Shown here one piece after another: positions 8,203-52,526 of a stretch of DNA of 64,000 nt. This DNA comes from Bidens hawaiensis (Eukaryota; Streptophyta; Magnoliopsida; Asterales; Asteraceae). The notes below the pieces were generated by a model. The model was not told where the DNA came from, ran no database searches, and worked only from the letters and a program-made list of their open reading frames with translations. Position 1 is the stretch's first letter. Each line of letters starts with the position of its first letter. The stretch spans positions 247,801-311,800 of the forward strand of contig JAIQDT010003577.1 of assembly GCA_021521415.1 (NCBI GenBank), in the 5' to 3' direction. The position numbers and the translations under genes were made by a program.

Positions 8203-8550
8203 AGACGGATCAAACAGTCATATCAAGCGAACTTATCAAACAAACGAACACGAGATTTGGGGTGACAACCCTCGACTCCTTTCATATAACCAAACGAACA
8301 TAACTTCACGAACATACAAGGAGAAGAGACCTCTCTTGACTCACACAAATAAAACTAATAATCTATACCCTATTTATAGACCTACTAAACTTGTTATTCA
8401 AGACAAACCCAACTTGGAAAACAAAACAAACTTATTCTAGAATAATCCATACTATTCTTACCATACTAAACAATTATTAATATAAAAATTAACAAAACAA
8501 ACCCCGAACTTTAATCACTTAACAAATCAAGATTAAATCTTCATTCACCC
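8203..8550. repeat. Direct repeat A flanking a copia fragment, possible LTR
   Basis: This block is repeated in the same orientation at about 9,767-10,091. Shared segments include GGGGTGACAACCCTCGACTC, CTTATTCTAGAATAATCCAT and ACAAATCAAGATTAAATCTTC. The two copies flank coding remnants of a copia element, so they behave like its LTRs. No primer-binding site was found next to the right-hand copy. Confidence 0.6.
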
Positions 8551-8592
8551 ATTTAATCTTGAATTGTATTTCTTATTGCATTTTTTCCTCCT

Positions 8593-9757: not shown

Positions 9758-9766
9758 ACATCTTAA

Positions 9767-10091
9767 CGGGTCAAACAATCATATCAAACGAACTTATCAG
9801 ACAAACGAACATGAGATATTGGGGTGACAACCCTCGACTCTTTTCATATAACCAAACGAACATAATTTCACGAACATACAAGAGAAGAGACCTCTCTTAA
9901 CTCAAACAAGTAAAACTAATAATCTAGACCTACTAACTTGTAATCCAAGACAAACATAACTTGAAAAACATGACAAACTTATTCTAGAATAATCCATAAT
10001 ATACTTACCATACTAAACATAAATTTATATAAAACTTAACATAACAAACCCCGATCTTTAATCACTCAACAAATCAAGATTAAATCTTCAA
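9767..10091. repeat. Direct repeat B, partner of the block at 8,203
   Basis: Same orientation and sequence family as the block at 8,203-8,550, with small indels. Similarity ends at AAATCTTCA on the right. If it is the 5' LTR of a minus-strand element, then the leader, primer-binding site and gag start have been deleted, because gag coding abuts it directly. Confidence 0.6.
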
Positions 10092-10197
10092 ATGTTTGTT
10101 TATTTTTATACTAGGGTTGGAGAGTGAGTATTGAAATAAAAACGAACAAAAAAACAATTCAGGGTTACGGAGCTTGGTTTGACCCAAAAATACTACC

Positions 10198-10390
10198 TAG
10201 GGGTGCAAACGAGCCGAGCACGACTAGGCTCGAGCTCGACTCGTTTAACTTACATAGAGCTTGAGCTCGAGCTTGGCTCATTTAGAGCTCTATTTCCAAA
10301 GCTCGAGCTCGGCCCGTGGGTAGATTTTCAAGCTCGAGCTTGGCTCGGGCTCGGCTTGTTTACCATTTGTAATTTATTTTTTAAATAATA

Positions 10391-10441
<51 letters not shown>

Positions 10442-10722
10442 TGTATAAAATAATATATATTATTTAGTTATTTTTATTTATTTTTTATAGCACTATATAT
10501 ATATATATTAAATATATATTTCAAGAAATTATATAAATGGCATGCTCGTTTAGACTCACGAGCCAGCTCGAGCTCGATAAGTGAAGCTGAGGCTTGGGCT
10601 CGTTTATTAAACGAGCTTACTTTTAGGCTCGACCTTGGGCTCGATTACACTCGGCTCCTTCGAGCTTTTTGGCGAGCCGATCTCGAGTAGCTCACAGGCA
10701 GCTCGGCTCGTTTTCACCCCTA
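10198..10722. mobile_element. hAT-like MITE with 8-bp target duplication
   Basis: The ends TAGGGGTGCAAACGAGCC and GGCTCGTTTTCACCCCTA are inverted repeats. Long inverted arms rich in GCTCGAGCTCG fold toward an AT-rich centre. The flanks ATACTACC (10,190-10,197) and ATACTATC (10,723-10,730) differ at one position and fit an 8-bp hAT target duplication. There is no transposase. The AT centre includes a TA microsatellite at about 10,391-10,439. Confidence 0.85.
10391..10439. repeat. (TA)n microsatellite
   Basis: An almost pure TA dinucleotide run in the centre of the hAT-like MITE. Confidence 0.95.
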
Positions 10723-11479
10723 ATACTATCCCGGGGTTTCAAAGTCCGGTTTTATGTGAAAAAGGACAAAAGGCCATTAACACATACGTTTCTGTTAAAA
10801 ACTCTAAAAACACCATTTGTGAAATGCAATGATTTTTACACCTTTCGTGAAAATGGTCCTAAAACATCATTTTTGAAAAACAAAATGATAAAATCAGATA
10901 TCATGTACCTTTACATAACTAAACACACGTAAATGTTTGATTACTTTTTTATGGCTTTTTAATTTTTTTTATTTCTTTTTTGTCACATGTGGGATTTGAA
11001 CATTAACAACTTGAAAAACAAAACTTTATACAACACTTCCGTATTACTAGGCCCAAGACCCTTTGATAAGTATTTAATTAGTTTAACTTAATTCATTAAT
11101 GTCTAGAACAATTAGTTATTTACATTAACAACACTAATGAATAGCCTCACCAAAGTATGGAGGGCAATAGCTATATTTCTAACTCATGTTCTTTTCTTTT
11201 CTGATTACTTCCGGAATGCAAAATTTATATAAAGTTTAATACATGTTACGAGTAAGGATTAGGGTAAGACTATCGATGGCAATGGGATAGGATTTCGTTT
11301 GAACAACCCTAATTTCAAACCTTTGAAGAAGATCACAACCACGATCTTTGTTACGTACCAATTTTCCTACATATATGGAGGAGATCGATTTGACTGATGT
11401 GAAGATCAAAGTAATATTTTAAATTTAATTTTTTTTTTTTGACCTCTGTGAAGAACAATATTGTTGAAAATAGTTCCAA

Positions 11480-13260
11480 TTACAATAAAGAGGCAGGTAA
11501 GCGGGCAACAAGCTGCGCCGCCACTCCCTTTTGAATGGCAAAACCGATCCTACTGAAAACAAAGTTATCGTTCTTCGGCTTCGATGAGTTACTTTGCACG
11601 ACCCGCTGAACTCTTTTTAGAAACGCAACAGCATCGGGGGCAAGGGACCCAAATGTGTCAAAAGCAAAAGGAATGAAGGCGTGTTGATTCTCCACACACG
11701 TATTCTCGTGCTTAGCAATTTTTCCTGCTTCTGCCTTTAGCACGGCATGCCTAGCAACAAACCCAGTGTCCCTAAGCCCGACAAGAGGGGACACCCCAGT
11801 AAGGTCCACACAAGCATGCCTTCCCCCCCCCCCCCCCCCGCCCATCCAAACACAAGAATGTCCGCTGGTCGGAGAGTAGACCTTCCTTCACGTGGATCCG
11901 ACAAGAAATTCACAGGAGCCTCTTTTCTTGCCGAGATTCCCGCCCGTTTTAACACATCACAAAGGACATCTCTGACCAAATCATGTCTATATTTGAACCC
12001 AGGGAGTTCTTTGCAATGAATCGCGTGTTCACCAAAATTATCTAAACAAACCTTACGACAGACCGGGCATGGCTCATCAACTGGGAACAGTGGGATCATT
12101 AAACGATATTTAAGAATGGCTCGGTACTCCACTGCTGACATGTGCTGGCCTAACCCTTCGATTGGGGTGACAGTCAAAAAGTCTTGAGCATGAGGAGCCT
12201 GAAGACATTCTAATACCGCTCTTTGACGAGAGGACATGCCAAACTTTTCTCCCAAACTTTGGACGGTTTTACTATAAAGGGCACTCGCCAAAGCATTTTG
12301 GGCTTTAGGGGGGGCGGTGTCCTTATTAGCGAACCCGCCAAGATCAAAATCGGGAATAGAGTTGTGCAAATAATCCATCACACACCCAAAATCGGAATCC
12401 AACCCATCACCACCACAAACACGCAAAATGTGGTTCTGTAACTTCCAAGATTGTGCTCTCGAGGCGACGAAAGCATAGGTGGAAACATCCTCAGCTGAAT
12501 ATAACACTAAACCACCGAAATGGATAGGGAGAGAGGCTAGTCTCCATTGAAAATCCCCAAAAAACGGACCCCCACATACCACAATATCCTCAATCGCCGC
12601 TCGAAGCCCTTTGTCAAAAACAGAGACAGCTTCCTTAACAAACATAGGCTGACATGTTCGGAGTCCAAACAACAATTTAGCCACCCCCATACATGAGCGA
12701 AGCAAGAGAAGCTCACATTGAGGGTCACGCAGACAAGTAAGACATCTCATTAGTTCCACGGCTCTTGAAGCACTGGTAATGGCCAAACTACTGATAAACC
12801 CAGCATCCCGGCTAACCGCACCTCCAAGGAGTTTTACCACTAACTCCGGTCTCCCAATCCCTATAGGAAATAAACCTACTTTTGCCTTTACCCCATTTCA
12901 CGACGGCCAATATACTTCTGTCTTTTTAATATTAAGCTCAAGCCCTAAACTTGGCCCCTTAGATCTAATTATATCCAAGGCTTTAGCCACTTCAATGGCG
13001 TCTCCTATAATCGTGCCATCATCTAAGTACCATGCATGGAAAAGTAACTTGCAACCATCTCGTACTTGATGAATGAGGGGGTGTAAAGCTAAAGCAAAGA
13101 GAAGGGGTCCTAAAGGATCGCCATGTTGAACCCCAGTAGTTGACTGGATACAATCATTCCCTACATATAGCCTTGCCGGTTGCCCGTAAAGAAAATTAAC
13201 CCATAGGGAAATAGATGGGCATCTGGCACAAACTTCCTGCAGGAGGGTGGTCCTATCCAT
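11480..13260 (-). pseudogene. Broken non-LTR retrotransposon reverse transcriptase with C-terminal zinc knuckle
   Basis: On the minus strand the protein begins inside a reverse transcriptase domain. It shows GVQHGDPLGPLLFALALHPL and the catalytic box WYLDDGTIIGD, with YLDD in place of the more usual YADD. A stop interrupts the frame at about 12,898. The frame continues through a thumb-like region to a Cys/His knuckle, CPVCRKVCLDNFGEHAIHC, then RPADILVFGWAGG. The frame then breaks in a C-homopolymer at about 11,823-11,839, and the next frame continues ACVDLTGVSPLVG to an end at 11,480. The 5' part is missing. RT, then CCHC, then PAD...D resembles non-LTR elements with a restriction-like endonuclease (R2, NeSL and Dualen types). 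RT identity is firm; the endonuclease assignment is inference. Confidence 0.75.
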
Positions 13261-13535
13261 CAGGTTGAAGGCATTAGAAAAAAGTAATATTGCTTATGAT
13301 TTAATCTCCAATATTCTTACAAAGATGGGTCGTAGGTTCTGGGAAATACGAGTTGGCATAGTCTCCTTTAAACAGATTGTTTTATCAAACCAAACGTCTT
13401 ACGAATTAACTAGAGTGGTCATACCATCTTTTTTATACATAATAAGCAGCTATATAGATAGGACGATACATCAAAACAAATCGACACATGCTCCCACTTA
13501 ATCTATGAGAAGATGTACCCTTATTGTTGGTTGTA

Positions 13536-14072
13536 TTTTAAACCTGAATCTTTAATAAATCGAACAGTTGAATACCATCCTTTTCATTATCTGAAGCTTT
13601 CTATATTCTTAAATTAACAGGAAAAATTCAAAGTAGTTGCAAAACTAAGAAAAATAGATTAGACCTTGAATATTTCCCATGTGGGTCATTATAAAGCCAA
13701 GTTGATTCTAGTTTTGAAATGGTAATTTTTGTTGAGCTACATAATCGAGCAAAGAGAACTAGGCTCAGAAACTATGTTAGTCGTATGAACTTCCATTACC
13801 GAAGGTGTTGTGAGGGAAACATCAACTTTCACCTCCACCTTACCATTTATATCATCCCCTTCTAAACTAGTTACTACATTTTCCTTGTATCCTCATCCTT
13901 TGTTTCTACACAAAGCGAGTTTCCCTTATTATATTCTTTTCTAACTTCTCAATAACGATATACAAATCCACCTTTTCTTCATCTATTTGATCTTCTACCA
14001 TAGAATGATTCAGTTCACCTATTCCCGAACCAAAAACAAACTCACAACAACCACCGTTGTTTTTGCCACACT
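13536..14072 (-). pseudogene. Decayed GYF-domain protein fragment
   Basis: On the minus strand a frame from 14,072 reads CGKNNGGCCEFVFGSGIGEL and an acidic stretch, then stops. Further on, a linker (VKVDVSLTTPSVMEVHTTN) leads to TWLYNDPHGK near 13,698. After a frame change comes IQG, and then NLRI-stop-KASDNEKDGIQLFDLL at about 13,540-13,612. These match the start (W-x-Y-x-DP-x-GK-IQG) and end (LRIW...NE...LL-D-LL) of GYF domains as in plant PHD/SWIB/Plus-3/GYF proteins, which bind proline-rich peptides. In-frame stops, including one at the conserved Trp of LRIW, show decay. The large copia element is inserted just upstream of it (higher coordinates on this strand). Confidence 0.5.
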
Positions 14073-14077
14073 GCCTC
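14073..14077. repeat. Target-site duplication GCCTC, left copy
   Basis: GCCTC abuts the left LTR of the copia element and is repeated exactly at 22,985-22,989 after the right LTR. Confidence 0.85.
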
Positions 14078-14483
14078 TCAAGAATGATAAACGATAATTA
14101 ACGCACAACTTAAAATAACCGACTTATATTATAACCAGAAAATATAACTCAGAAAACTGATTCCAATATCTTTGGTAGTGATGGTGGTGATTGTTGTGTT
14201 TTTTGTTGTTATTTTTGTTGTTTTTGTTGTTATCTAGCACTAACTTTGTAGATGTATTTATACTAGTAACTCAGCTTGGTCACCAAGCATAAGATGTTTC
14301 CACCACTCAACTTGGCCATCGAGATGAACTTGGGCAACAAGGTCAACTTGGACAACAAGGTGAACTTGGCCACCAAGCAAATGGAAGAATGTTTCATAAT
14401 ACCCCTTAAACTTTAACTGACTTGTTGAAACCTCTTAGGCCCGGTTCACCGACTTGTGACCCGAAATAGAAATTAATCCAACA
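14078..14483 (-). repeat. Copia left LTR (3' LTR of the minus-strand element)
   Basis: Runs from TCAAGAATGATAAACG to AATCCAACA on the + strand, so the element's own strand starts TGTTGGATTAATTTC. It contains repeated phrases such as CAAGGTGAACTTGG and TTGTTGTT runs. It pairs with 22,590-22,984. Confidence 0.9.
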
Positions 14484-15166
14484 TTCACCCCCCCCCCACC
14501 TAATTTCTTATTCAGATTAGTAAGGTCTTCAACTCCAAGTAACTCGCGCATCTCCGTGAACTTGATTCTTGCGAGTGCTTTAGTGAGGATATCGACCCGC
14601 TGCTCTTTCCCGCTAATGTGCTCAACATCAACCTCGCCGTCGTTGTAGCAATCTTGGATAAAATGAAAGCGAGACTGTATATGTTTTGTTCGGTTCTGAA
14701 AAACCGGATTTTTCACAAGGGCTATTGCGGACGTGTTACCAACTTTCAACTCAACTTTCTGCAATGTTTCTCCAGTCAACTCGCTCAACAAATCTCGGAG
14801 CCATACAACTTTGCATGCAGCTGTTGAAGCCGCCATGTAGTCGGCTTCACACGATGAGAGTGAAACTGTCACTTGCTTTTGTGAGCACCATGTAATTGAA
14901 GATTGCCCGTAATAAAACATGTGCCCCGTGGTATTTCTACCATCATCCTCATCTATGTTGTGACTACTATCACTATAACCCACTAGTCGTTTGGACCCGT
15001 TCTTTCCGTACTTGATCCCGTAACTCGTCATTTTCTTCAAATATCTCAATAGGTGTCGTATTTCCATCCCATGAGATTCTCGTGGGCTTTGTATATATCG
15101 ACTAACAATACCCACAGAGTACGCCATATCCGGATGGGCGTGTAATAAATATTGTAAACAACCCAC
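14435..15166 (-). pseudogene. Copia RNase H domain
   Basis: A long open stretch on the minus strand reads the C-terminal reverse transcriptase connection (MGCLQYLLHAHPDMAYSVGI) and RNase H. The catalytic aspartate is in GYSDSSHN and the glutamate in SLSSCEADYMAAS, followed by KHIQSRFHFIQD and DILTKAL, as in plant copia polyproteins. It is intact over about 243 residues but disconnected by frameshift from the reverse transcriptase upstream. It overlaps the LTR edge at its C-terminus. Confidence 0.9.
14484..14505 (-). promoter_or_regulatory. Polypurine tract of the copia element
   Basis: On the minus strand a G-run flanked by GGTG and TGAA lies directly before the 3' LTR start TGTTGG. This is the expected position of the plus-strand priming tract. 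Confidence 0.75.
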
Positions 15167-15318
15167 TACCTTTCGATATCAAGTTCGACTTCATTCTCAG
15201 CTTTTGAGTATTTCACAACATGATCCATCGAGACTTGAGATGGATTGTAGTTTTGCATACTGGTCTCCTTCAGAATTATTTTGGCGTATCCTTCTTGTGT
15301 AATTACTATCCCAACCTC

Positions 15319-15995
15319 TCATTGAAATACTTCGATTCTGAGATAGTAAGTTAACTTCCCGAGATCCGACATCTCAAACTTGGTCGTCATACCGCTTTTG
15401 AAATCGGATATTATACTCGAGCTTGTACCTATCACAAATAAATCATCCACATACACGGCTACGATCAAAAAATGTTTCCCATATGTATTTCGGTAAACCG
15501 ACTGTTCCTTAAAACATTTTTGAAACTTCATGTCTCGTAGGATGTTACCGAGCTTTGTGTTCCAAGTTCGGGGAGATTGCCTTAACCCGTACAAGGCCTT
15601 TGACAACTTGTAAACTTTTTCCTCCTCGCCTTTTTTTCTCGTATCCTTCGGGTTGTGAAACGAACACAACTTCTTTCAATTCGCCATGCAGAAAAGCTGT
15701 TCTTACATCAAGATGGTGGATTTCCCACCCATTAGATGCAGCCAATGCGATTAGTAGCCGAACGGTCTCTCAGGCTACCGAAGCGAAAACATTATCGAAG
15801 TCAATCCCGGGTTGTTGCACGTAAACCTTTGCAACCAACCGAGCTTTGTACTTGTTTATCGTTCCATCCGCATTACGTTTGATTTTGAACACCCACTTCA
15901 ACCCGATACATTTTGCACCCTTTGGAATTTCGACTAACTTCCATGTTCCATTCTTGTTTATTGAATTGGTCTCGGTGTTCATAACACGGACCCAT
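15319..15995 (-). pseudogene. Copia reverse transcriptase domain, frameshifted
   Basis: Three minus-strand frames together give a copia RT. They are GTWKLVEIPKGAKCIGLKWV with KARLVAKVYVQQPGIDF (15,982-15,770), then EIHHLDVRTAFLHGELKE (15,745-15,600), then YKLSKALYGLRQSPRTWN and the catalytic VAVYVDDLFVIG (15,620-15,319). The YVDD box is intact. At least two frame changes separate the parts. Confidence 0.9.
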
Positions 15996-16368
15996 TCTTG
16001 GTTCGAGCCTCAAAATAGCTACTCGGTTCACCACTTGCTGTGAGAAGCAATTGCTAATAGTCAAAGTCAATATGTAACACATAATCTTCTTGTAATCTTC
16101 TTAGTAAAACCGAGACTCGGGTTGAACGTCATAGACCCATTTGGGCCTCAATTTCACCCGAATAGACATGTGACCCATTACTCGTCGACTGAATTTGATA
16201 GCGGGTTGAGGAATTAGGCCTGATATGACTTGGTTCGGTTGAGTCGTTGGACTCGGGTTGAAACGATGATGTAGGTTCAGAGCTTGGGCTACCCAGGTTA
16301 CTTACAGACGTTTCTTCAATGGTGGGTTCGATTTGACCAATTCCGTTGTCAACCGCACCCCCCCCCCC

Positions 16369-17676
16369 TCAAACATTAGAAAACATACCTGGTTCATAGT
16401 CATTCTTCTCGACTTCTTTACCCAATTCCATCCTTTTTTTCGTCAAACACAACGTATCGACTAACAATAATTTTTCGGGTGTTCGGATCGAAGAGACGGT
16501 ATGCTTTTGAACCCGTCTCCGACCCGAGATAAATGAGCTGTCTTGACCTGTCACCGAGTTTTTAAAGATATACACTATAAACTTTAGCATACGCCATGCA
16601 CCCAAATACTCGAACGTGTTCAATAATCGGTTTCTTTTTCTTGAACCGCTCATATGGAGTCTGATCAACCAAGATCCGGGTTGGGACCCAATTGATTAAA
16701 AAGGTTGAATGTCGGACCGCTTCTCCCCACATATAATTCGGTACCTGCATCGTTTTTAGAATACTCCGCACCATCCCTATTAAAGTTCTGTTTTGCCTTT
16801 CTACCACGCCATTTTGTTGTGGCGTGTACGGGGCGGTTAAATGCCGGATAATTCCACTTTCATCGCAGAATCGATTGAAATCACGTGAAATGATTTCTCC
16901 TCCCCTATGGGTTCAAAGAGTTTTCATTGGTAAACCTGCCTCCGTCTCGATTAGGGCTTTAAACCTCTTAAAACTTTCAAACGCTTCACCTTTTTCTTTC
17001 AATAAAAACGTCCACATATATCGTGAGTAATCGTCTATAATAACAAAGACATACCTATTACCCGAGATGGTGGATGGGGTATTGGAGCGCAAAAATCACC
17101 ATGAACTAACTCCAAAGGTTGGGATGCTCTAAACGAGGATGTAGCCGGAAACGAACGCCTCATTTGTTTACCCACCAAACATGATTCACACAACTGATTT
17201 CGTGTTTAACATGTGGTAAACCTCGTGCAAGATCTTTCTTAGCCATCTATTTCATTAACTCGAAATTGATGTGCCCAAGTCTTGCATTCCAACACCATGC
17301 ATCATCTTTGATCTTTGATTTCAAACACACGAGAGCTCCAATCTTCATACATATTTTGTAGAGTCAGTTTGCGGATCTCTTAACCTTCATGAGTAACCTC
17401 CCATTCTCATCGTACATTTTCAAAAGATCGTGTGTCATCCCAATGTCACATCCGGACTCCGTTGCTTGAACGAGACTTATTATATTACTTTTTAACTCCG
17501 GAATGTAATAAATCTCGGTTAGCAAGTCTTGGTCACCCGATTTTCCTTGGAAAAATATTGAGTCTTTTCCCTTGATTTGAACAAATGACCCATCTCCGAA
17601 CTTAACATTCCCGGTTATGTTCTCGTTTAACTCTAAAAAATATGACCGGTTTCCCGTCATATGATTACTTGCCCTG
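16369..17676 (-). pseudogene. Copia integrase, interrupted
   Basis: On the minus strand 17,660-17,364 reads MTGNRSYFLELNENITGNV, KFGDGSFVQIKGKDSIFF and YYIPELKSNIISLVQ, the N-terminal zinc-binding part of integrase with the end of the protease region. Near 16,807-16,370 come MVERQNRTLIGMVRSILK, NYMWGEAVRHSTFLINW and VRVFGCMAYA, the end of the integrase core. Frame breaks lie between. The upstream piece WYLDNG is separated from this part by the solo LTR at 17,675-21,363. Confidence 0.85.
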
Positions 17677-18061
17677 ATATACGTCTATTTATACATCTCG
17701 AATCCCTTGTAAAGTTATGTTTATTTAATGTTTTAAGTTCATTTTAGTTCTAGTTTTGTTTATCTTTTATTAATTTAGGTTTTGAGTCAAGTTTTATATA
17801 TTTATCATGTTTTAACTCTATTGGTGTCTTGCATGTTTTACTTAATTCTTTCTATCTTTTCATGCGAAGTTTAAGTACGTTTTGTTCGTTAATGACTACA
17901 TGATTATTCCACTTAGCGTTTCGATTTGTTTTCATGTAGATGGTGGTTTGAAAGTCAAGGAAAACAAGTTCTAGAAGATTCTCAATGTTACTTGGAGTTT
18001 AAGAAGAGATTAATCAAGATTTAATAAAGAATAATCAAGAAAAAACAACAAAAATCCGATT

Positions 18062-18205
18062 TTCCCTTTAGAGGGCGCCGCCGCCCGCGAAGGCTAGAGG
18101 CCATTCCCTTCGGGGGGCGCCTAGGCCTTCTGGTCAGCAAAAAAGGGCGCCGCCGCACGCGAAGGAAGGGGCCGCGGGGCGCCTAGGGCTCCCTGGTCAG
18201 CCATC
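18062..18205. repeat. GC-rich two-copy repeat in the U3 region of the solo LTR
   Basis: GGGCGCCGCCGC..CGCGAAGG ... GGGGCGCCTAGG ... CTGGTCAGC occurs twice, about 75 bp apart, in otherwise AT-rich DNA just upstream of the TATA-like box. CpG-rich blocks in this position are candidates for heavy methylation. Confidence 0.75.
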
Positions 18206-18816
18206 TTTGCAAGTCCAAGCCCGTTACTCGCTTATATAAACATCTCTTGCAAACCTAGCAGAGGGAAACAACTTGGGCAGCCAATTTTGGAGAGAAAACA
18301 AAGGGTTTGAAGGTTATTTGGAGCTAGTAATCAAGGAAGATCATCAAGCTTTCATCCAAGTGTTCAAGGATCGATTAAGACGGGTTCTTTCGTTCTTTAT
18401 CTTTGTTCTTGTTCATTATCTTTCATGATGTTTCCTTTTGTTCTTTGGTTTAGTTCTTTGATTATAACTATGCAAGGCTAGACTTCATGTCTACCTAGGT
18501 TTGATGAACATGTTTGATGCATGATTCTTGCTTTGGATAATTGTTTGATTATGGATTTCGTTATTTAATAGTAAAGACTTGGTTTTGTTTTCATGATGCG
18601 TATAAGTATTTATTATCTTGATTGATTATTAACTATTGCTTCACATAGATCTTTTATCTTTTGATTGTGTTCTTTAGATTTAAGGTTTATGTTTAAATCA
18701 TTACTTGGTGTCTTGATTATTGTGATTAAATGGGCCCGTTAGATCATAGAAGCTTGTTGATTGTTGATTAGGATTATGAATGCTTTGCCAAATTCCAATA
18801 GCTGTAAGGTGAGGAG

Positions 18817-20694
18817 TGTGACATCTGCCCCATCCGACCCGACCCAGGTACCCGTTTTCCGATCCGATTCTTTTTATGATTTAAAATTTAATTATTTCCT
18901 TTTAAAACTTGACATTTAAAATATATATTACTAATAAAATATTTTCCTTCCCGCCTCTTTCTCTCTTTCCGCCGTCCCGCTCTCCTTGTCCTTTGTTTCT
19001 TCCCGCCTAAGGTTGTCTGCGCAGTTCCACGCGCCAGACTCCTTACAAGGAAGCCTGCGTGGAGACCGTCTGTTGCTGCGATACGCGAGGCGAACTGTCC
19101 CCGCAGCGCGCTAAGGATTATAGTTCTTCCCGCGACGCGCTTAGAATTGAAGTTCTTCCCGCGGCGCGCTTAGAATTGTAGTTCTTCCCGCGGCGCGCTA
19201 AGGTTGGTTCTGTCTGCCTTCACGCTCGCGCACTCTTGACCTTCTGTGTCTACCTTCGCGCTCGCGCGCTCGAGCCTTCTCGCGCTAAACCCCTTTGAGT
19301 CTTTTCTTCTGTTTAATCCAGCTGTTTACTTTTGTGATGTCTTATCTTCTGTGCTGTTGACCTGACCTATCTTATGTCTGAAAAGCCACTTTCGGCGCAG
19401 CATGTGCACCAACCCCATTGGTTGACAGAAAAAGTGCTGACATTATCTTTTGAGATCTGCTTTTCCATGCTTTGACCAGTACCTTTATCTGACCCTCCCA
19501 TGCCTGTTTACTGTTCCCTGTCAGCTTTCTCTTGTCCCCTGCAGCTGCCATATCTTTTGATATCTTTTGCTTTTGGAACCTTTTTGCTTTTGTTATCTTT
19601 TGCTTGATCCTGTTGAAGATCTTTTCCTCTTTTCTAGGGATTGTGTTCCCTAGGGTTTTCCTATAAATAATAATGTTATTTTCCTAACACTACACACACA
19701 AAGCACTTAAACTCTCCTGTTCTCTCTTGCTCCTTGCCGTTGTTCTTCCTCAGCCGCTTCTCTCTGCCTCCGTCTTCCTTCCTGTTCTGCCCTGATTTCC
19801 GGTAATATATAATATATAATATATAATAATTTACTTATTAATTATGCTAACTTATAATCAAGACTTAAAACAAATCATTAAAACGATAATCTTTAATTAT
19901 AGGATAACTTTGCTTGTTAAGAGTTGGTTCTTGCTTTATCTTACACCGCACCGTTATCAAGTGAGTAATCTCGTACCTAATCCCTTTTTATTTTTAATGT
20001 TTTGGGATGTTCATGTGTTCGTACAAACTGGAGTCTTAAACTTGTTTATGAACTTTAGTCGCGCAGTATCCCATGTGTTGAGGACGTTTACTTGGCTGTT
20101 TATCTGTATGTGTGTATCATTAACCGCTTTGTTCGGCCTATTCCGCAGTTTTCATGGATCCATTAGATGAACACGGGAGACCTATCGTTTACGGTTTTCT
20201 TTGTTTACACTTGCACAGATGTTTTCTTGTTTTTGTGCTCAATTGGGAGCACGGATTGAACTATGAGCTATGATCTATTTAGGCTTGATCACAATCTGAT
20301 TACACCCTTGTTAAACACCAGACATACACGTGTTGCGCGCAGTGATTATTGTTATCTATTATTATCTATTAAACTTGATTTCTCACCAACACGCAAGTGT
20401 TTGACGTTTTATTTTAACACATGTTCAGGTTTGCTGTAGCTACATTTGGAGCTTGTGGACACGTAGGACGTTTTTACTTTTGGACCTAGATTAAAATGTA
20501 TCCAGACAAGTTATTGTTGTTCGAATATTTTGCCTTATAATATATTGATTTATGTTGATTTATGTTATCTTGTGTTTACGTTGCGCGTGCGTGAATGAAT
20601 ATATTTATTAAATATTGACACCCAATAGTGTCACGAGTAATGAAACAATATGTGGCGCCCCGATGTATAATCCGCCTTTGGTCGGGGTGTTACA
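18817..20694. mobile_element. Solo LTR of a gypsy element, nested within a solo LTR
   Basis: Starts TGTGACATCTGCCCC and ends GGTCGGGGTGTTACA, the terminal style of plant chromovirus-type gypsy LTRs. It is flanked by the perfect 5-bp duplication AGGAG (18,812-18,816 and 20,695-20,699). A TATA-like box (CCTATAAATAATAATG, about 19,660) precedes a pyrimidine-rich leader. No internal region exists, so recombination between LTRs has removed it. This is the third level of nesting at this site. Confidence 0.9.
19105..19205. repeat. About 32-bp GC-rich tandem repeat in the solo LTR
   Basis: Three to four copies of GTTCTTCCCGCGGCGCGCT followed by TAGAATTGTA-like sequence lie in the putative U3 upstream of the TATA-like box. 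They could be enhancer repeats or methylation targets; that is inference. Confidence 0.8.
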
Positions 20695-21439
20695 AGGAGT
20701 TGTTCATGTGTCTTGGTCAATTGCATGCTAGGATGGTTAGTGACAATATTCTTGCTTATTGTGTTGATCCATGTTCATGATGTCATGTTAACTTATCAAG
20801 TTATCTAGAGTTTAGTGTTTCGTAAGATTGCTTGCTTCAGATAGTATTAATCAACCCTAATTGATGACTTTGCGAAAATCAATAATACTGATTGCTTAAT
20901 AATCCAATAATTATTCTTTGGGATTTCGTTTGATTCAGTCAAGGGTCCTTAGGGTTTGTTAGATGAATACATTTAGAAATCAGTTTCCATAATCATGTTA
21001 ATTGTCCATTGCTTGATGATTGTTGATGCATGGGATTCTTACCTAGGTATATTCCTTCTCAATTTGGTTCCGATCTTGTGTTTGGTTGCTTGTTTCTCGT
21101 TTACTTGCTTATTTGTTTTCTTAGTTTAATATTAGTTTAAAATCCCCCTTAAAACATTTATAACAAATAGTCGTGTCGTAAGTCGAGTCTAATTAGTTAA
21201 TTAACGTAATTTATAGATTCCTGTGGGTTCGATATTCCGGACTTACTTAGCTTAGTACAATTGACCGGTTCACTTGCCGGTGTTTTGTTAAGTTGAGTCT
21301 TAGGTCTAGTTTTTATTACTTGTTTAATTTAGTTAATATTTATTGACTGTTTTCACCACATCATTCCCCATTATCCAAATACCATACATCATCTTCGACT
21401 CGCTCAGTCTCGTATTTCTTTGATATTAGGTTTGTTCAT

Positions 21440-22318
21440 TTAAGAACACAACTTGATGCATATACGCCGCATCATCAAAATTTTCATGAGCTTCGGTTTT
21501 GTTTGCTTCTTGACCCTTTTGAACTCAGTCCTGGCAACCGGATTCAAAGTGACCAAACTGGTCACATCGATAACATAAAATCTTTGACCGACCTTTTTCA
21601 CATTTATTTTCCCCCGACTTGATGGCCCTTGTTCAGTACTAGGGGTTCGGTATTGGCCATTAAAACTTCCTCGACTGCGACCTCGACATCCTCGTCCTCG
21701 TCCCCCATTAGATTCATAACTTCTATAACTTGATGAATCATATTTACTGAATAAAAGTTTACCTTGGTCACCCCCTTGAATTTCTTCTTCTCGGATTCGC
21801 TCCTCATAGGCTCGGAGTCGGCCTACAACATCTTCAAATCCCATTTTATTGAGATCCAACACTTGCTCAAGCGAAGCAACCATCTGAATATACTTTGAAC
21901 TTGGGAGACTTTTGAGAAACTTCTTTACCAACCTTGCTTCATCTATAACTTCACCGAGAGCCGCTGATTTTGAGGCAATGCTCGATAACTTGCCCACGAA
22001 GTTATCTATGGAATCTGAATCGTTCATTTTTGTATTGTCAAATTCCATTGACAAGGTCTGGAGACGTGCTTCTCTAACCCGTTTGACACCTAAGTGTCGG
22101 GTTTTAATCGAATCCCACATGACTTTAGCAGTTTCTTGATCTCCAATTTGCATGATCAAGGTTTCGGGTATGGATTGAAACAACAAGGCCATAGCCATGT
22201 CATTTTTGTCTTCATCGGAGACACCCGAGTTGATGGTGTCCCAAACTTTATGAACTCTTAGGACGACTTTAATCTTCATAGCCACACGGTATAGTTCGTT
22301 GCAGTTTACATTGGACAT
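21440..22318 (-). pseudogene. Copia gag with frameshifted zinc-knuckle region
   Basis: The minus-strand frame reads a copia gag: HKVWDTINSGVSDEDKND, ALLFQSIPETLIMQIGD, KVMWDSIKTRHLGVKRVR, FLKSLPSSKYIQMVASLEQV and MGFEDVVGRLRAYEERI. An Arg/Gly-rich tract (GGRGRGCRGRSRGSF) follows. The Cys/His knuckle expected after it is out of frame: the other frame gives a C-x2-C-x-Q/F-G-H-like run near 21,540-21,575. Gag coats the element RNA in virus-like particles. Confidence 0.85.
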
Positions 22319-44537: not shown

Positions 44538-47500
44538 ATGATGGAGACAGTAAATGGTGAAGGTGCTAATGGTTCCTCACACTTAGCACTGCCAACAAGT
44601 GCACCTTTGTGTGAAGTTATAGAACTTGATGTGGAGACAGATCATGAAAATGGTCTAAACCGTTCGGTTATTAGTAGGCCTGGATTTGGAAGCAGTGGAA
44701 GACCTATTCCATTGCTTGTTAATCACTTCAAAGTTTCTGTCAAGAATCCAGATGAGATTTTCTACCAGTACAGTGTATGGTATTGAAGTTTTAGTTTTTG
44801 TTTCATAATCTTTATAGTCAAGCATGTATTTCTATAATGTCATGATAATGCAGGTATCCATCACTTCTGAAGATAACAGAGCAATTGAGAACAAAGTTTT
44901 AGGAAGAAAGATTCTTGACAAATTATACCAAACATGCTCGTCTGAACTTTTTGGTAAGAAATTTGCATATGATGGAGAGAAGAGTTTGTATACTGTTGGG
45001 CCTTTCTCTAAAAAGAAGTATGGGTTCAAGGTTGTTCTAGAAGATTCTTATGCAAACCGGTGTGTCAATCATTTCATACTTGTTAGCTTTGTAGACTTGC
45101 AGTTGAATATTTTAACTCTTTGAAGATTTTAGCTAAAATAACTTTACTTTTTGTAGTGGAAGCCCTGCTCATGATGGGATTCCTAGTGAATCTGATAAAA
45201 GGGCAAAACAGTCTTTTCAGGAGAAGAGTTTCAAAGTAGAGATCAGTTATGCTGCTGAAATACCCTTAAAGTCAGTTGTTCTTGCCCTTCAAGGATCAGA
45301 GACTGAAAAAATTCAAGATGCATTGAGGGTTCTTGATACCATATTGAGACAACAAGCAGCTCAAAGGCACTTTTTATTTTCTTTCCATGTGTGCTTGTTG
45401 GTTCTTAGTTTTTGTTATATATTTAGCTTATTATGTCTATTGTTGATGCAGAGGATGCCTTTTGGTTAGGCAATCATTCTTTCATGATGACTCAAGGAAC
45501 TTTAGTGATGTTGGAGGGGGTGTCACAGTATGCAGTGGATTTTTTTCTAGTTTTCGTCCGACAATTGGTGGTTTGTCATTGAATATGGGTATTTCCTTTG
45601 TTGACTTTACAGTTTATTTATGGTAGTTGTTCTTCATTTGATTATTTACTTATTGCATTTGTTTGTGTAGATGTATCATCTACAATGATTATTACTCCTG
45701 GTCCAGTGATTGATTTTTTAAAATCTCACCAAAATGTACGTGATGCTCGGTCTATTGACTGGCTAAAGGTAATAACACATAACACGGTTATAGACATAAT
45801 TTTCTTTCCATTTACTCACTTGCAGTATATGTGCATTTAGTTAACAGGCCAAGGAAGTGTTAAAAAACTTGAGAATTAAAACAACACATAGCAACAGGGA
45901 GTTCAGGATCACCGGGATGAGTGAAAAACCGTGCAATCAACAATTGTAAGTTTTTATTTTTATTGATTGTATGTCTGTAACTCCCAATTGTGTGACAACT
46001 GATATTTTTTGTTTATTTTAAGGTTTTCTATGAGAGAGAAAAAAGAAAACGGTACATATGATGGCGAGACTGTAAATATTACAGTTCTTGATTATTTTAC
46101 CAAGCACCGTAAGATTGAAGTTAGTTACTCTGCTTACTTACCATGCATTGATGTTGGTAAACCAAAGAATCCAACCTATTTGCCTGTGGAGGTTGTATCT
46201 TAATTTAACCTTTCCATTCTCTGTATGTTTTTTTAGGGAACCTTCTAATGATATTATTTCTCATGGTTTGTAGCTATGTTCTCTTGTTTCACTTCAACGG
46301 TATACGAAGGCATTATCTACATTGCAGAGAACATCTTTAACTGAAAAATCTAGGCAAAAACCTCGAGAGAAAATGCAAGCTATAACAAATGTAAGTCTTT
46401 ATTGCACTGTTCATCCTACATATCATGGAGGTAGCCTGGGCTGGTTTAGGCCTGTAACTGAACCGAACATTTTGCGAACCCTTCTCCCTTCGGTTGGGTT
46501 GACCATAAACACATTTATTTTTTATTATTTTGTTAATACTCAAAGTTGTTAAGTAAAATGATCTAGGAAATTGCACATGCTAAAACACTTTAGGTGACTT
46601 TCAACCCTTTTGACCCGTTAGGGTAAAACATAAGCTGGATCGACCTGTTTATAAGAAAAATGTTTAATATTTGCCACATCACTACCTTTTTATTTTGTAA
46701 TTTGATCAGTTATTTAACCTATCAGGCTATGAAAAACTATTCGAGCCGGGGGTCTCACCGGAAGCAGCCTCTCTATCCTTATGGGGTAGAGGTAAGGCTG
46801 TCTACATCTTACCCTCCTCAGACCCTACTATAGCTTTGCTATTGGTGGGATATACTGAGTACGATGATGATGATGATGAGGCTATGAAAAACTATCATTA
46901 TGATGATGACCGTTTACTAGCTTCATGTGGAATTTCTATTGATAAACAATTTGCTCAAGTTGAAGGTCGTGTTCTTGAAGCACCAAAGGTTGTTATTTAC
47001 TTTTATTTTATAATGCATATCTTTATATTTCTGGAAATGTGATCACAATATCCTTCACATTTGATATCTTTGCGATCGTAGTTAAAAGTTGGCAATGAAG
47101 AAGACTTATCTCCTAGTAATGGAAAATGGAGCTTTAAAAACAAGGTATTTTTATGTATATTCTTATACATGTTAAATTATAAAAAGAATTGCAGCTAATG
47201 TATCTATCTTTTTCAAATTATTTTCCTTGCAGAAACTTTTTAGTCCCATCAAAATAAAATTTTGGGCAGTTGTTAATTTCTCTGCAAAGTATGATGCAAG
47301 CTTTATTTCACGGGAACTCATAAACTGTGGAATGAGTAAAGGAATTGTAAGTGAACAATCGCTAATTCTTTGTCTGCTTTTATTTCATATGTTTTGATTT
47401 TGGTTTTTATTTTTCTCAGATTATTGATCGTCCATTTTCACTAATGGAGGAAGACCCACATAATCGAAAATACGGGCCCGTGGTACGTGTGGAAAAAATG

Positions 47501-50500
47501 TTTGACTATCTTTTGACAAAGTTCATACGTCCTCCTCAGTTTCTTCTTTGCATATTACCAGAGAAGAAAAACTGTGACTTATATGGTAATTACTAATTCG
47601 TTTGTTTGTTGTATAAAATGCATCATCATCATCATCGTACTCAGTATATCCCACCAATAGCCAAGCTATGGTAGGGTCTGAGGAGGGTAAGATGTAGACA
47701 GCCTTACCCCTACCCCATAGGGATAGAGAGGCTGCTTCCGATGAGACCCCCGGCTCGATAGTAGTTTTGCATCAAGCCTTGGACATAAGGCACATAGCAC
47801 TCAATCATCGGGACAACGGCTGATTGGTGCATGTACCATTGTCTTTCGGCTATCAACGCCACCACATGATGCCTGATTAACCTTCTGCCACTTTTAACGT
47901 TATTTTCACGAGATTAGTAAAATAACGTTAAAATTAGTGCAATTTTACTTTTGCCCACCCGAGATTAGTAAAATAACGTTAAAATTAGTAAAATAACGTT
48001 AAAATTGTTGTATAAAATGCGTTACATCTAAATAATACCTATTTAATTTATGAAGGTCCTTGGAAGAAAATATGTTTAAGTGATCATGGAATTCCTACAC
48101 AGTGCATATGTCCACTTAAGGTAACTGATCAATATCTCACAAACGTGCTTTTGAAAATTAACTCGAAGGTATTGAACTTAAATATTTATATTCTTTTTGT
48201 TTATCTATAAACTTATATCAACTTATATATTTTTGTTTTTTCTGTCTTAAGCTTGGTGGGATCAATTCTTTGTTATCAGTAGAGCAGTTATCTTGTATAC
48301 CCATCATACATGATACTCCAACAATGATAATGGGGATGGATGTATCTCATGGGTCACTGGGTCGACCCGATATCCCGTCAATTGCTGCGGTACTGCTTTA
48401 TACTGTATTCCTTCACGGGCCACTTCTTGGCTTGTTAATGAACCTGATGAACACGAACGCAACATGTGCGTGTTTGTTCGTTTAATTTCAACCGGACAAA
48501 TGAACAGACAGTAACACTTAAAAACAGATTTTCTTGTGCCTGTTCGTTTGTTAAGAAAATGAGTGTGTTTGTGTTTGTTTATGTTCTTTCGCTAATATAC
48601 TAAACAATGGTTCATTAACATCACCAATTATCTAATATAAGTAAATGACACAGTCGGTGCCACAAGAGAAATTTAAGTTTTTTATATTGTTTTTTTGTTT
48701 GTTTGCAATTTGACTTTTTAACTATTTTTCTTTTTCCTTTATGTATATATATATTGAGTGTTTTTTTGTTTGTTTGTAATTTGACTTTTTAACTATTTTT
48801 CTTATTTCCTTTCTGTATATATATATATTGAGTACATGATAGGTCATTTTTAAGTTCTTTTATTGTTTTTTCTGATTTTTGCAATTTGACTTTGTTATTG
48901 TATTTTCTTTTCATATATAACAAAAGACAACTTTGGTTCCACAAGGGCCTGATTGGGCCACTTGGCGGCACCTTAGTTGTCGAAAAAAAATTCTGTTTTT
49001 GTATTTTATTTTCGATACCATAACAAACATAACGTAAATCGGTCAAAAGAATTATGTTTTTGTATTTTAGTTTCTATACCGTAACGAACATAACGTAAAT
49101 CAGTCAAATGGCAATTTGTTTTCTCTATTTTTGTTTTAGTTCACCGTAATGAACGTCACGGAAACCGGCTAAAATCGCGTAGACTCGCGTCATTTGGTTT
49201 TAGTTTCGGTATCGTGACGAATATAACGACCACCGATCGAATGACAAATTTATTTTTTTTGGTTTTAGTTATGGTATCGTAACAAACGTGGAGGAGACCG
49301 ACTCAATTTGCGTAAAATCACCACCTCAATGCCCGGATTTGACAACATTTGGGTTTTACCACTACTCGGGTTTTACCGACCTGCCCAGCGCAACGCGCTG
49401 GGCTGAAAATGTGACTATCCAAATTAAGGTCTAAAATATCATTATCTTTACATCCAACATTTTAAAAGTTCACAAAGAGTTCTAAAATATGAAAATTAAA
49501 TTGATTTCAAAGTAATATTAGTAAGAAATAAATTTGGCAAACGTACGAACATAAATGAACAAACATAAACGAACGATCACAAACGTAAATGTACGATTGA
49601 AGCATGTGTTCATGTTCCTGTGTTTATTTAAATGAACAAAAGATTGTGTTCATGCGCATTCCTTAATTAATGAACAAACAGTAACGAACTTCCCGCATAA
49701 CAGTTCAGGATGGTTCACTGAACATTTGGTTTGTTCACAGGCCTAGTTATTTTGTTTCTTTACTATGTGGTTGTTTATTATTTTGTTTTTTTGTGAAAAA
49801 CGAGCACGTTTCTAGATTGTTGGATCTCAATCTTGGCCGTTGATTTCAAGATATAAAGCATGTGTTAGGTCTCAATCATCAAAGGTGGAAATGATTCAAG
49901 GTTTGTTTGAACCACAAGAAGATGGAACTGACAATGGCATGATGAGGTAGTTTTGTAAATATTTGTATGTTTTAAGATATTTACATGGTCTGTTAGACCC
50001 AATTTTTTTACTTTACTCGTTCAACCTGTTTGGTCATTTTGCAAACAGTGAACTACTTCTGGAATTTTATCGAACAAGCAATAAACACAAACCAACTCAA
50101 ATTATAGTCTTCGGGTATTAGTATTGTCAGTATCTTTTTGATGAAAATTGCATCATTTTCACATGCTTTTATGCAATTGTCTTATTATTATTATTTTTTT
50201 CACTCAGAGATGGTGTGAGTGAATCCCAGTTTAATCAAGTTCTGAATTATGAGTTGGATCAAATGATCAAGGTATGCTTATTATGTTCTCTTTATGAGTG
50301 GGTCAAACAGGTCAAACTAAAAGTTTTAGGTAAATACAGGCTTACCAGTTGCTAGGTGAGGGTGATCCACCTAAGTTCACAGTGATCGTGGTTCACAAGA
50401 GGCAGCACACAAAGCTCTTTAAAGCTAATGGCCCTGAAAATGTCCTTCTGGTTTGTTTTTTAATAATTATTGTTACTTTTACTTGTTTTTCTCAGTTTAA

Positions 50501-50637
50501 ACAATTAAAAATTAACCTCATTTATTTTATGGTTATGCATGTTCAGGTACCGTAGTAGACAATAATGTGGTGCATCCAAGAAACTATGATTTTTACATGT
50601 GCACTCAACCAGGAATGATTGTGAGTTCCTAAAACCC

Positions 50638-50684
<47 letters not shown>

Positions 50685-52526
50685 TTGTTTTTATATAATG
50701 TAATAAGTCTAGATCTATTTGCTTTTTACATATTAGTGGGCACATAATAATGTTTACTTGTTAAAGGATATTATAGACGCATTTACTTGAGAATGGGTCA
50801 ATTTGTGTTATGTTTAATCATGAATGGGTTAAATGGATAAGCAAATACTATTAGCTTCAAAGGTTAAAATTTTTTCCCAAATTGTACTATTAATGTATGA
50901 AATCTTCTAAATAATTTTTTTTAAATATAGATTTCCGTACTCATATAACTTTTGTAATCATAACAGACAGTTACGCTAATTATAAGGCCTGTAAATGAAC
51001 TGAACATCCCAGTGAACCGTTCGGCAGGAAGTTCATTTATGTTCGTCAATTTAATAAAGGAACGAACATGAACAAATTTTTTTGTTCATTTAGTTAAACA
51101 AACAAATATGAAGATGTATCTTGCTCGTGCATTTATATGTCCGTTCGTTTACGTTCATTGTTTTAAGTTTGTTTTTTGTTTCAAGTTCTTTCCTTAACGT
51201 TCGTTAATACATTCATTTTAACTTTTCTTTTGGCCTTTTACATTTTAGTCTAGTTTTAATAACGGTTTAAGCCCAACACATTGTTATCCACATTTACATT
51301 TAATTGGTTTTAGCCCTGTTATGTTCGTAAAAAGTTCGTTTATATTGTTAATGAACGAGCAGAAATGAACACAAACACTTTCATTTCCTTAGCCAACAAA
51401 CAAATAAACCACATTCAATTAATTGTTTGTGTTTGATCGTTTGTTCGGTTAAAGTTAAATAAACGAACACAAGCATGCTCTGTTCGTGTTTGTTCAGTTC
51501 GTTTACAAGCCTACTGATTATTTATATTTATATATATATTTAAAATGCAGGGCACTTCTCGTCCCGCACACTACCATGTCTTGCTTGATGAGATTGGTTT
51601 CTCTCCTGATGCCTTGCAGAATCTTATCCTTAACCTATCATATGTGTGAGTATTCAAGCTAGGGATTATGTTATTCCACGTCATGTGATTTTCAGAAAAT
51701 AGCTAGGGCATTTTTGTCAATTATGTCATTATATTTTTTGGTTTGAAAATTAATTTTTCTGACAAAGCAGTGAGAACTTGTTAGTTAGTCCAAAGAATTT
51801 TTTTTGTAAATTGCATGACATGCGGCATAATCTTTTCAAACCATTAAAGTTTATTATTATTTTTTTATTTTTTTGTTAATCATTATTGACCTTTGAAATG
51901 GCATTACAGATCCCAACGGGGCAGCACTGCAACTTCAATAGGTATTTCTTCATCTGTAGCACACTTAAAGTCATATAACCCGAACACGACCCGTTAAACC
52001 CGTTTATCTAAACTTGTCAAATGGGTTGGCGGGTTGTAACAAATGGGTTAAACGAGTTGACTCGCCAACTTTAACCAAGTGGGTTGGCCATTTAATTGAA
52101 CAGGTTAAACAGTCAACCTGCCCATGACCTATTTAATTAAACAGGTCAATCTGAGCACGATCGTCTTATTATTGAAACATGTTAAATGGTTCAAAAGTCT
52201 CTCAATGTGTATTTCAGTGCATAAAACCACCTAAATTGTTTTAAACCCAAAACGTTAGATTATTGTGAAATAAAATAAGTTATAACCAATAAGACTTTGG
52301 ACAACTAGAAAATTACAAAAAATGAAACTATCATTTTTTATTTTTTGCAGTGGCGCCTGTTTCTTATGCGCATCTAGCCGCCCGACAAATGGGCCAGTTT
52401 ATAAAGTTTGAAGATTTACATGAAACCACGGCTGGAACAGACAACGCCACTTCCTTGGGAAGCATACCCGTCCCCAAGCTGCCTAAGTTAGATGAAGATG
52501 TTGAAGATTCCATGTTTTTTTGTTAA
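44538..52526 (+). CDS. AGO6: Argonaute of the AGO4/6/9 clade, AGO6-like, 22 coding exons, possibly disrupted
   Basis: Coding exons: 44538-44774, 44854-45059, 45157-45366, 45452-45588, 45671-45768, 45848-45945, 46023-46191, 46274-46390, 46881-46988, 47082-47144, 47233-47346, 47420-47585, 48056-48168, 48252-48389, 49816-49946, 50049-50114, 50208-50271, 50340-50450, 50547-50620, 51551-51645, 51910-51941, 52351-52526. All junctions but one are in phase, giving about 907 residues. N domain: [20 protein letters not shown]; linker: [23 protein letters not shown] about 265-385; PIWI from about 565, with catalytic Asp642 in GMDVSHG, Glu in KVEMIQ, Asp725 in GDGVSE and His in [15 protein letters not shown]-terminus [28 protein letters not shown] and [13 protein letters not shown] favour AGO6. 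Such proteins bind 24-nt siRNAs and recruit DNA methylation to transposons in the nucleus. Problems: a SINE at exon 9, a one-base frame deficit at the exon 18 donor, and Gly in place of the usual Arg before Asp725. The clade is firm; the exact paralogue is likely, not proven. Confidence 0.9.
45367..45451 (+). other. GC-AG intron 3 of the Argonaute gene
   Basis: The exon reading RQQAAQR must leave at CAAAG|GCACTT and rejoin at GATGCAG|AGGATGC to continue [10 protein letters not shown]. No GT donor keeps the frame, so this intron uses a GC donor. Confidence 0.8.
46724..46895 (+). mobile_element. Au-like SINE on the exon 9 acceptor, with 17-bp target duplication
   Basis: AGGCTATGAAAAACTAT occurs at 46,724-46,740 and 46,879-46,895. 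Between the copies (46,741-46,878) lies a SINE 3' body: TCGAGCCGGGGGTCTCACCG, GAAGCAGCCTCTCTATCC, GGGGTAGAGGTAAGGCTG, TCTACATCTTACCCTCCTCA, GACCC and GGTGGGATATACTGAG, with a GATGATG tail. This is the conserved body of plant Au-type SINEs. The target included the intron 8 acceptor AG and the first 15 bases of exon 9, so both copies carry AG|GCTATG. The upstream acceptor alone would read into an in-frame stop at 46,831. The copy is 5'-truncated relative to the one at 47,622. Confidence 0.92.
47606..48020 (-). mobile_element. Longer SINE-containing insertion in intron 12, inverse orientation
   Basis: TTGTTGTATAAAATGC at 47,606-47,621 is repeated at 48,005-48,020, a 16-bp target duplication around a 383-bp insert. 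On the minus strand the insert ends with the same Au-like body and GATGATG tail as the copy at 46,741 (here at 47,622-47,766). It starts with a further segment of about 240 bp (CATCATGTGGTGGCGTTGAT, AGCCGAAAGACAATGG and CTATGTGCCTTATGTCC) plus three copies of AGATTAGTAAAATAACGTTA near 47,910-48,004. No clear A and B boxes were recognised, so the 5' head is of uncertain origin. Confidence 0.85.
48390..49815 (+). other. Large intron 14 with repeat content
   Basis: The intron between [19 protein letters not shown] and [13 protein letters not shown] measures 1.4 kb, unlike most of its neighbours, which are about 70-250 bp. It contains TGTTCGTT/AACGAACA-rich segments at both sides (48,400-48,620 and 49,540-49,745, the latter ending TTGTTCACAGGCCTAG, a MITE-like end). 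It also holds TTTTTTGTTTGTTTGTAATT duplications near 48,690-48,800 and a minisatellite. Confidence 0.7.
48990..49315 (+). repeat. Degenerate minisatellite, about five units of about 65 bp
   Basis: The unit TTTTTGTATTTTAGTTTC..TACCGTAACGAACATAACGTAAATC.GTCAAA recurs at about 48,994, 49,050, 49,122, 49,195 and 49,260, with growing divergence to the right. Confidence 0.75.
50638..50682 (+). repeat. (TTA)n microsatellite in intron 19
   Basis: Pure trinucleotide run of about 14 units just after the donor of exon 19. Confidence 0.95.
50984..51513. mobile_element. hAT-like MITE in Argonaute intron 19
   Basis: The ends AAGGCCTGTAAATGAACTGA and TCAGTTCGTTTACAAGCCTA are inverted repeats. The flanks CTAATTAT (50,976-50,983) and CTGATTAT (51,514-51,521) fit an 8-bp duplication with one change. 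The interior is rich in GTTCGTT/AACGAAC arrays. There is no coding. Confidence 0.8.
51960..52160. repeat. CCCGTT/AACGGG-rich segment in intron 21
   Basis: TAACCCGAACACGACCCGTT and repeated GGGTTGGC/AACCCG phrases resemble a family of plant MITEs rich in CCCGTT and AACGGG. Clear termini were not found. Confidence 0.4.

What the first reader, a model, noticed from the sequence alone, without database searches (positions are those of the whole stretch)
46724..46895. SINE insertion duplicated the splice acceptor of an RdDM Argonaute exon
The 17-bp target duplication AGGCTATGAAAAACTAT spans the intron 8/exon 9 boundary (AG|GCTATG...). The gene now has two identical acceptor-plus-exon-start sequences with a SINE between them. 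The upstream copy keeps the original pyrimidine context but leads to an in-frame stop (46,831). The downstream copy restores the exon but has a purine-rich GATGATG tail as its upstream context. The target gene acts in silencing of transposons, so a transposon decides its splicing.
Basis: seen in the sequence. Interest (0 to 1): 0.88.

Follow-up and report, generated by a model that had tools for sequence, protein, structure and literature searches.

The report
Transposon doubles an Argonaute splice acceptor
A short jumping element recently landed exactly on an intron/exon border in one of three copies of a plant silencing gene, copying the splice site to both of its sides; the sequence event is firm, but its effect on RNA is only predicted and this gene copy is probably already broken elsewhere.

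Summary
A 17-bp perfect repeat (46724-46740, 46879-46895) brackets a 138-bp insert and carries the exon 9 acceptor AG and first five codons of an AGO6/AGO16-type Argonaute. The host genome, very probably hexaploid Bidens hawaiensis, yielded two other copies of the gene, both with the empty site. The insert equals the last 138 nt of a young 388-nt SINE-like family, so it is recent. The upstream acceptor keeps its full context (score 5.54); the downstream copy is poor (-5.46, no branch motif).

Each of the three homeologs found carries one frameshift.

Best reading: a plant counterpart of the dog merle insertion that mis-splices one homeolog already decaying. That the transposon 'decides' splicing of the silencing Argonaute is not supported. 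No RNA was available.

The parts
44541..52526 (+). AGO6/AGO16-type Argonaute gene, copy A (22 exons modelled)
   Evidence: (best hit Helianthus anomalus, 87% identity), tblastn, exon model
46274..46390 (+). exon 8
46724..46740 (+). target-site duplication, upstream copy: acceptor AG 46724-46725 plus first 15 nt of exon 9
   Evidence: single copy in B and C
46741..46878 (+). SINE-like element 1, 138 nt, 5'-truncated, 138 of 138 identical to the family consensus
46726..46791 (+). predicted 66-nt in-frame chimeric exon (22 codons: 15 nt of repeat + 51 nt of element)
   Evidence: prediction
46792..46880 (+). predicted 89-nt intron: donor GTAAGG from the element, acceptor from the downstream repeat copy
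   Evidence: prediction
46831..46833 (+). in-frame TAG if the exon runs on from the upstream acceptor
46879..46895 (+). target-site duplication, downstream copy: acceptor AG 46879-46880
46881..46988 (+). exon 9 proper (108 nt, 36 codons, Argonaute linker 2)
   Evidence: ArgoL2 placed at 419-464 of P0001
47622..48004 (-). SINE-like element 2, inverted, in intron 12; 16-bp TSD TTGTTGTATAAAATGC at 47606-47621 and 48005-48020
   Evidence: absent in B and C
47621..47758 (-). right arm of the 138-nt inverted repeat with element 1 (133 of 138 Watson-Crick pairs, 135 with G-U)
48615..49406 (.). third A-only insertion, intron 14, about 790 bp (edges approximate)
50340..50450 (+). exon 18, one base shorter than the frame of relatives needs; frame lost downstream
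50113..50114 (+). end of exon 16: conserved FRDGVSE Arg reads Gly

Best explanation
In one homeolog of an AGO6/AGO16 gene of a hexaploid Bidens, a 5'-truncated copy of a recently active SINE-like retroposon inserted at a site spanning the intron 8/exon 9 border (shown by two empty-site copies; the reverse-transcription route is inferred from TSD and tail). The 17-bp duplication left a complete acceptor with its branch and pyrimidine region upstream of the insert and only AG plus exon start downstream (shown). Inferred: the spliceosome uses mainly the upstream acceptor. The transcript then either runs through the element to the stop at 46831 and is destroyed, or uses the element's strong donor at 46792. 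That donor defines a 66-nt in-frame exon, joined to exon 10 or, less often, to exon 9 through an 89-nt intron made of element plus duplication. Normal protein from this copy is reduced or lost. This is tolerated because other copies or AGO4 paralogs exist or because the gene was already failing. The insert is best seen as one step in the decay of this homeolog, not as a regulatory switch.
For: Empty sites in 2 of 2 other gene copies found. Element identical to the consensus, 138 of 138. Splice scores from this gene's own introns: upstream 5.54, the highest AG between 46420 and 46990; downstream -5.46, below 19 of the 20 other acceptors; element donor 8.89, above 20 of 21 native donors. Branch-like yUnAy motif 15-60 nt upstream: three for the upstream site, none for the downstream one, present for 18 of the 20 other acceptors. 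Five isoforms modelled: four keep the frame, the read-through one stops. Copy A has an exon 18 frameshift and changes at two residues conserved in 110 of 110 relatives, R723G and H766Q.
Against: No RNA. A native acceptor of the same gene, exon 15, scores even lower (-7.87), and the acceptors of exons 13 and 22 also lack the branch motif, so the poor downstream copy could still be used. Other AGs near the site score close to the upstream one (4.32 at 46981, 4.26 at 46546). dN/dS on the A branch (0.34) is only a little above B (0.25) and C (0.29), and several A-branch differences are sites where A keeps the residue of other Asteraceae. The frameshift might be an assembly error. The splice matrix is small and its training introns are not independent.
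Confidence: 0.68

Rival explanations
1. The insertion is almost neutral: the downstream acceptor is used, the element is removed as part of a longer intron 8, and homeolog A makes normal exon 9.
For: The downstream copy restores a full exon 9 in frame. Weak acceptors occur elsewhere in this gene, e.g. exon 15 at -7.87.
Against: A complete native acceptor sits 155 nt upstream with three branch-like motifs; the downstream site has none within 15-60 nt and scores 11 bits lower.
Confidence: 0.15
2. Nascent intron gain: element plus duplication are removed as an 89-nt intron (46792-46880), giving a stable Argonaute with 22 extra residues in linker 2.
For: Strong donor in the element (8.89), in-frame, no stop. 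[quoted passage not shown]
Against: The 3' site is poor and lacks a branch motif; joining to exon 10 looks easier. The frame is lost in exon 18 anyway.
Confidence: 0.1
3. The inverted pair of elements dominates: the stem around exons 9-12 drives exon skipping, back-splicing (451-nt circle of exons 9-12) or small RNAs that silence the gene.
For: Arms 138 nt, 742 nt apart, duplex -279 kcal/mol with 135 pairs, 132 inter-arm pairs in the predicted fold of a 1301-nt stretch from 46600. Pol II inverted-repeat transcripts can feed RdDM (PMC7544125, passages).
Against: Predicted from sequence only; splicing may finish before the right arm is made. No small-RNA data.
Confidence: 0.1

Closest known systems
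Canine merle SINE insertion in PMEL17 (PMC7349775, passages read)
   Same: Short retroposon at an intron/exon border, 15-bp target duplication at the original acceptor; competing acceptors change splicing.
   Different: Merle element is in reverse orientation, its poly(T) acts as pyrimidine tract and its length tunes splicing; the passage leaves open whether the acceptor itself is doubled. Here the element is in sense, the tail is GATG repeats, the intact acceptor is upstream and the element supplies a donor.
Au SINE exonization and intron retention in wheat (PMC5787218, passages read)
   Same: Plant SINE in genes of a polyploid, insertion polymorphism with empty sites in some species, element-containing transcripts.
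   Different: The passages seen name intron, exon and exon/intron-junction locations but describe no duplicated acceptor.
Introners with TSD-derived splice sites (PMC9860276, passages read)
   Same: Mobile element carries the 5' splice site and takes the 3' site from its target duplication.
   Different: Introners are multi-copy intron makers, mostly DNA-element-like, found in no land plant in that survey; here one retroposon copy and splicing not shown.

Membership tests
SINE (short non-autonomous retroposon) | target-site duplication and 3' short tandem tail | tested here: met
   17-bp and 16-bp TSDs and GATG tails in the window; flanking repeats visible by eye at some full-length copies such as L029 and L030
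SINE (short non-autonomous retroposon) | short, high-copy, homogeneous family | tested here: met
   388-nt consensus; 4 of 12 full-length copies compared differ from it at 0 sites; 1746 first-look candidates for the whole 1401-base query, 40 scored
SINE (short non-autonomous retroposon) | Pol III promoter (A/B box; tRNA-, 7SL- or 5S-derived head) | tested here: not met
   No Rfam match or tRNA on one full-length copy, L029; A and B box matches no better than shuffles (683 and 1000 of 1000 reached them). Hence 'SINE-like'.
AGO6/AGO16 clade Argonaute | closest relatives named argonaute 16/6; ArgoN-L1-PAZ-L2-Mid-Piwi | tested here: met
   120 of 1307 hits listed; where a source gives a specific Argonaute name it is mainly argonaute 16, with argonaute 6 for P0060 and P0081; domains on P0001 (the ArgoMid match is just under its cut-off). 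No tree was built.
AGO6/AGO16 clade Argonaute | intact reading frame | tested here: not met
   Copy A loses frame in exon 18, B in exon 13, C in exon 18
RdDM effector | binds small RNAs and directs DNA methylation | not testable with these tools
   By homology only (PMC7544125 passages)
Introner-type intron gain | element-borne 5' site plus TSD-borne 3' site | tested here: met
   GAG|GTAAGG at 46792 and AG at 46879-46880, as sequence; use not shown
Introner-type intron gain | spliced out in RNA | not testable with these tools
   no transcript data
Introner-type intron gain | many copies of the family act as introns | not tested
   other copies were not checked for position in genes
Merle-type acceptor duplication | TSD at an intron/exon border containing the native acceptor | tested here: met
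Merle-type acceptor duplication | element in reverse orientation with poly(T) as pyrimidine tract | tested here: not met
   element is in sense with a GATG tail

The most novel reading that the evidence does not exclude
The element and its own duplication are a newborn plant intron (46792-46880) with a 22-codon chimeric exon. Together with the inverted copy in intron 12, this makes the transcript of an RdDM Argonaute a hairpin substrate of the pathway the protein serves, so that silencing of SINEs feeds back on the splicing or silencing of the Argonaute itself.
Probability: 0.06. Interest if true: 0.85.

Novelty: new variant of a known kind. Interest (0 to 1): 0.45.

Why it matters
It is a clean natural experiment: one homeolog with the duplicated acceptor and two with the empty site in the same genome. 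Homeolog-specific RNA reads would show directly how a plant spliceosome chooses between two identical acceptors that differ only in upstream context, and whether a retroposon can make an intron in a land plant. It also raises the possibility that this hexaploid is losing its AGO6/16 genes.

Tried and rejected
Assembly chimera as source of the repeat: rejected, because the junction is unique, the halves are contiguous in two other copies and the element is a real family.

Methylation-driven C-to-T decay of copy A: not seen (C>T/G>A 29, T>C/A>G 27 of 126 A-branch changes in reliably aligned intron sites).

Allelic rather than homeologous copies: unlikely, with intron differences of 7.6-9.7%; not excluded.

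Frameshifts as plain assembly noise: 99 of 110 scored GRAS loci read through the domain in one frame without stop, 6 were cut short and 5 had a stop (counted by eye); 6 of 6 long single-exon AGO loci were open (four of them re-read). Three breaks in about 8.2 kb of AGO coding sequence exceeds that, but only the 110 best of 334 candidates were scored, which favours unbroken loci, so noise is not excluded.

Same 5' truncation point as an element signature: an exact pattern gave 3 places, one the window itself; the pattern included the target letters, so nothing follows. The unbiased pattern did not complete.

Tandem donor in exon 18 restoring frame: second donor scores 1.08 against 4.94, so unlikely to be the main form.

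Paper searches listed no report of this insertion in the held library; papers other than the five quoted (PMC9113482, PMC7349775, PMC5787218, PMC7544125, PMC9860276; passages only) were seen as listings.

Full report
Observation. The 17-bp repeat is exact, unique in the window and far beyond chance. It carries the exon 9 acceptor AG and the first five codons. Reading on from the upstream copy stops at 46831.

Host and gene. The window lies in a genome of 3,474,515,312 bases in 15,902 contigs. The Bidens hawaiensis HiCanu haploid assembly is tabled at 3,478,010,306 bases in 15,958 contigs, and contaminants were filtered from the chosen assembly (PMC9113482, passages), so this species is very probable; it is hexaploid. 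The gene is an Argonaute whose best hits are Helianthus anomalus (87% identity), Smallanthus and Deinandra; where the listed hits carry a specific name it is mainly argonaute 16, with argonaute 6 for two (120 of 1307 hits listed). I modelled 22 exons from 44541 to 52526. A search of the whole genome with the Helianthus protein found three loci matching at about 71-93% per exon: the window (A), C13009 (B) and C1847 (C). Other Argonautes matched mostly at 37-65%, up to 73% over single short exons; 50 of 407 candidates were scored. Introns differ by 7.6-9.7% between copies, as expected for homeologs.

Empty sites. In B and C the two halves of the region meet at a single copy of the 17-bp repeat. 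That is the pre-insertion state in 2 of 2 other copies found. Both also lack a second related element in intron 12 and a third insertion of about 790 bp in intron 14.

The element. Twelve full-length copies and three shorter ones were compared, out of 40 scored candidates. The consensus is 388 nt, and 4 of the 12 full-length copies equal it at every aligned site. Element 1 equals the 3' end in 138 of 138 positions, so it is recent; the copies compared were among those most like element 1, which biases towards identity. Element 2 in the gene differs at 36 of 380 sites, partly because its 5' end is unrelated. TSDs and a GATG tail are clear in the window and visible at other copies. No Pol III head was found, so I call the family SINE-like. 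Its likeness to the 3' domain of Au-type plant SINEs is recalled and was not tested.

Splice sites. Matrices were trained on the introns of this gene in the three copies, leaving out intron 8. The upstream acceptor scores 5.54, the highest AG between 46420 and 46990; two others come close (4.32 at 46981, 4.26 at 46546). The downstream copy scores -5.46, lower than 19 of the 20 other acceptors; exon 15's native acceptor is lower still at -7.87. Branch-like motifs: three for the upstream site, none for the downstream copy, present for 18 of 20 other acceptors. The element carries GAG|GTAAGG at 46792 with score 8.89, above 20 of 21 native donors. Upstream acceptor and this donor enclose 66 nt, in frame and without stop. 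I modelled five outcomes: normal exon 9; read-through with stop; 66-nt exon plus 89-nt intron plus exon 9; 66-nt exon joined to exon 10; exon 9 skipped. Four of five keep the frame. The read-through form has its stop far upstream of later junctions and should undergo nonsense-mediated decay (established knowledge). Exon 9 lies in Argonaute linker 2, as placed on P0001.

Inverted partner. Elements 1 and 2 face each other 742 nt apart; 133 of 138 positions are Watson-Crick complementary, 135 with G-U. The left arm ends next to the downstream acceptor and the right arm begins 35 nt after the exon 12 donor. A hairpin, exon 9-12 circles or small RNAs are possible; none is shown.

State of the gene. 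Each copy has one one-base frame break, each in or at a short run of one base: A and C in exon 18, B in exon 13. Branch dN/dS is 0.34 (A), 0.25 (B) and 0.29 (C), so constraint lasted until recently; the three-copy comparison is unrooted, and at several A-branch sites A keeps the residue of other Asteraceae. Copy A has changed two residues conserved in 110 of 110 relatives (R723G, H766Q), B one (F823L), C none. As a control for assembly errors, 99 of 110 scored GRAS loci are unbroken and 6 of 6 long single-exon AGO loci are open. The AGO6/16 breaks may therefore be real, but reads are needed.

Mechanism and verdict. Shown: insertion with empty homeologs, identity to a young family, duplicated acceptor, intact upstream context, donor sequence in the element, inverted partner. 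Inferred: upstream acceptor preferred, loss or change of exon 9, reduced protein from this homeolog. With two other copies, AGO4 described as partly redundant (PMC7544125, passages) and a frame break downstream, the insertion is more likely a step in decay than a regulator.

Comparison. The nearest known case is the dog merle insertion, with a 15-bp duplication at an intron/exon border (PMC7349775, passages). Wheat Au SINEs show exonization and intron retention in a polyploid (PMC5787218, passages). Introners show elements that bring the 5' site and borrow the 3' site from the duplication, and were not found in land plants in that survey (PMC9860276, passages). This case combines these features, in sense orientation, with empty homeologs as controls.

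Corrected on re-reading: stem pair counts, the wording on gene-copy completeness, relative names, and the Au SINE and merle comparisons.

Noticed in passing
window 50340-50450; L014/L015 (C13009); L016/L017 (C1847): All three AGO6/16 homeologs found in the assembly carry one one-base frame break (A and C in exon 18, B in exon 13); either assembly error or ongoing loss of AGO6/16 in this species.
   Followed up: partly
window 46741-46878 and 47621-47758: Two related elements in opposite orientation flank exons 9-12 closely, a geometry expected to favour hairpins and circular RNA.
   Followed up: partly
window 45364-45370: Intron 3 as modelled uses a GC donor (AAG|GCACTT) in all three copies; the relatives P0004 (Mikania) and P0011 (Ambrosia) show odd residues at this point, suggesting gene predictors stumble here.
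   Followed up: partly
window 48615-49406: A-only insertion of about 790 bp in intron 14; identity not determined.
   Followed up: no
L008, L029, L030, L031: Full-length 388-nt SINE-like copies identical to the consensus at all aligned sites point to a currently or very recently active family without a recognisable Pol III head.
   Followed up: partly
window 6514-22318: F-box-associated fragment (6514-7293), zinc-knuckle ORF (9187-9741) and copia-type gag (21440-22318) on the minus strand.
   Followed up: no
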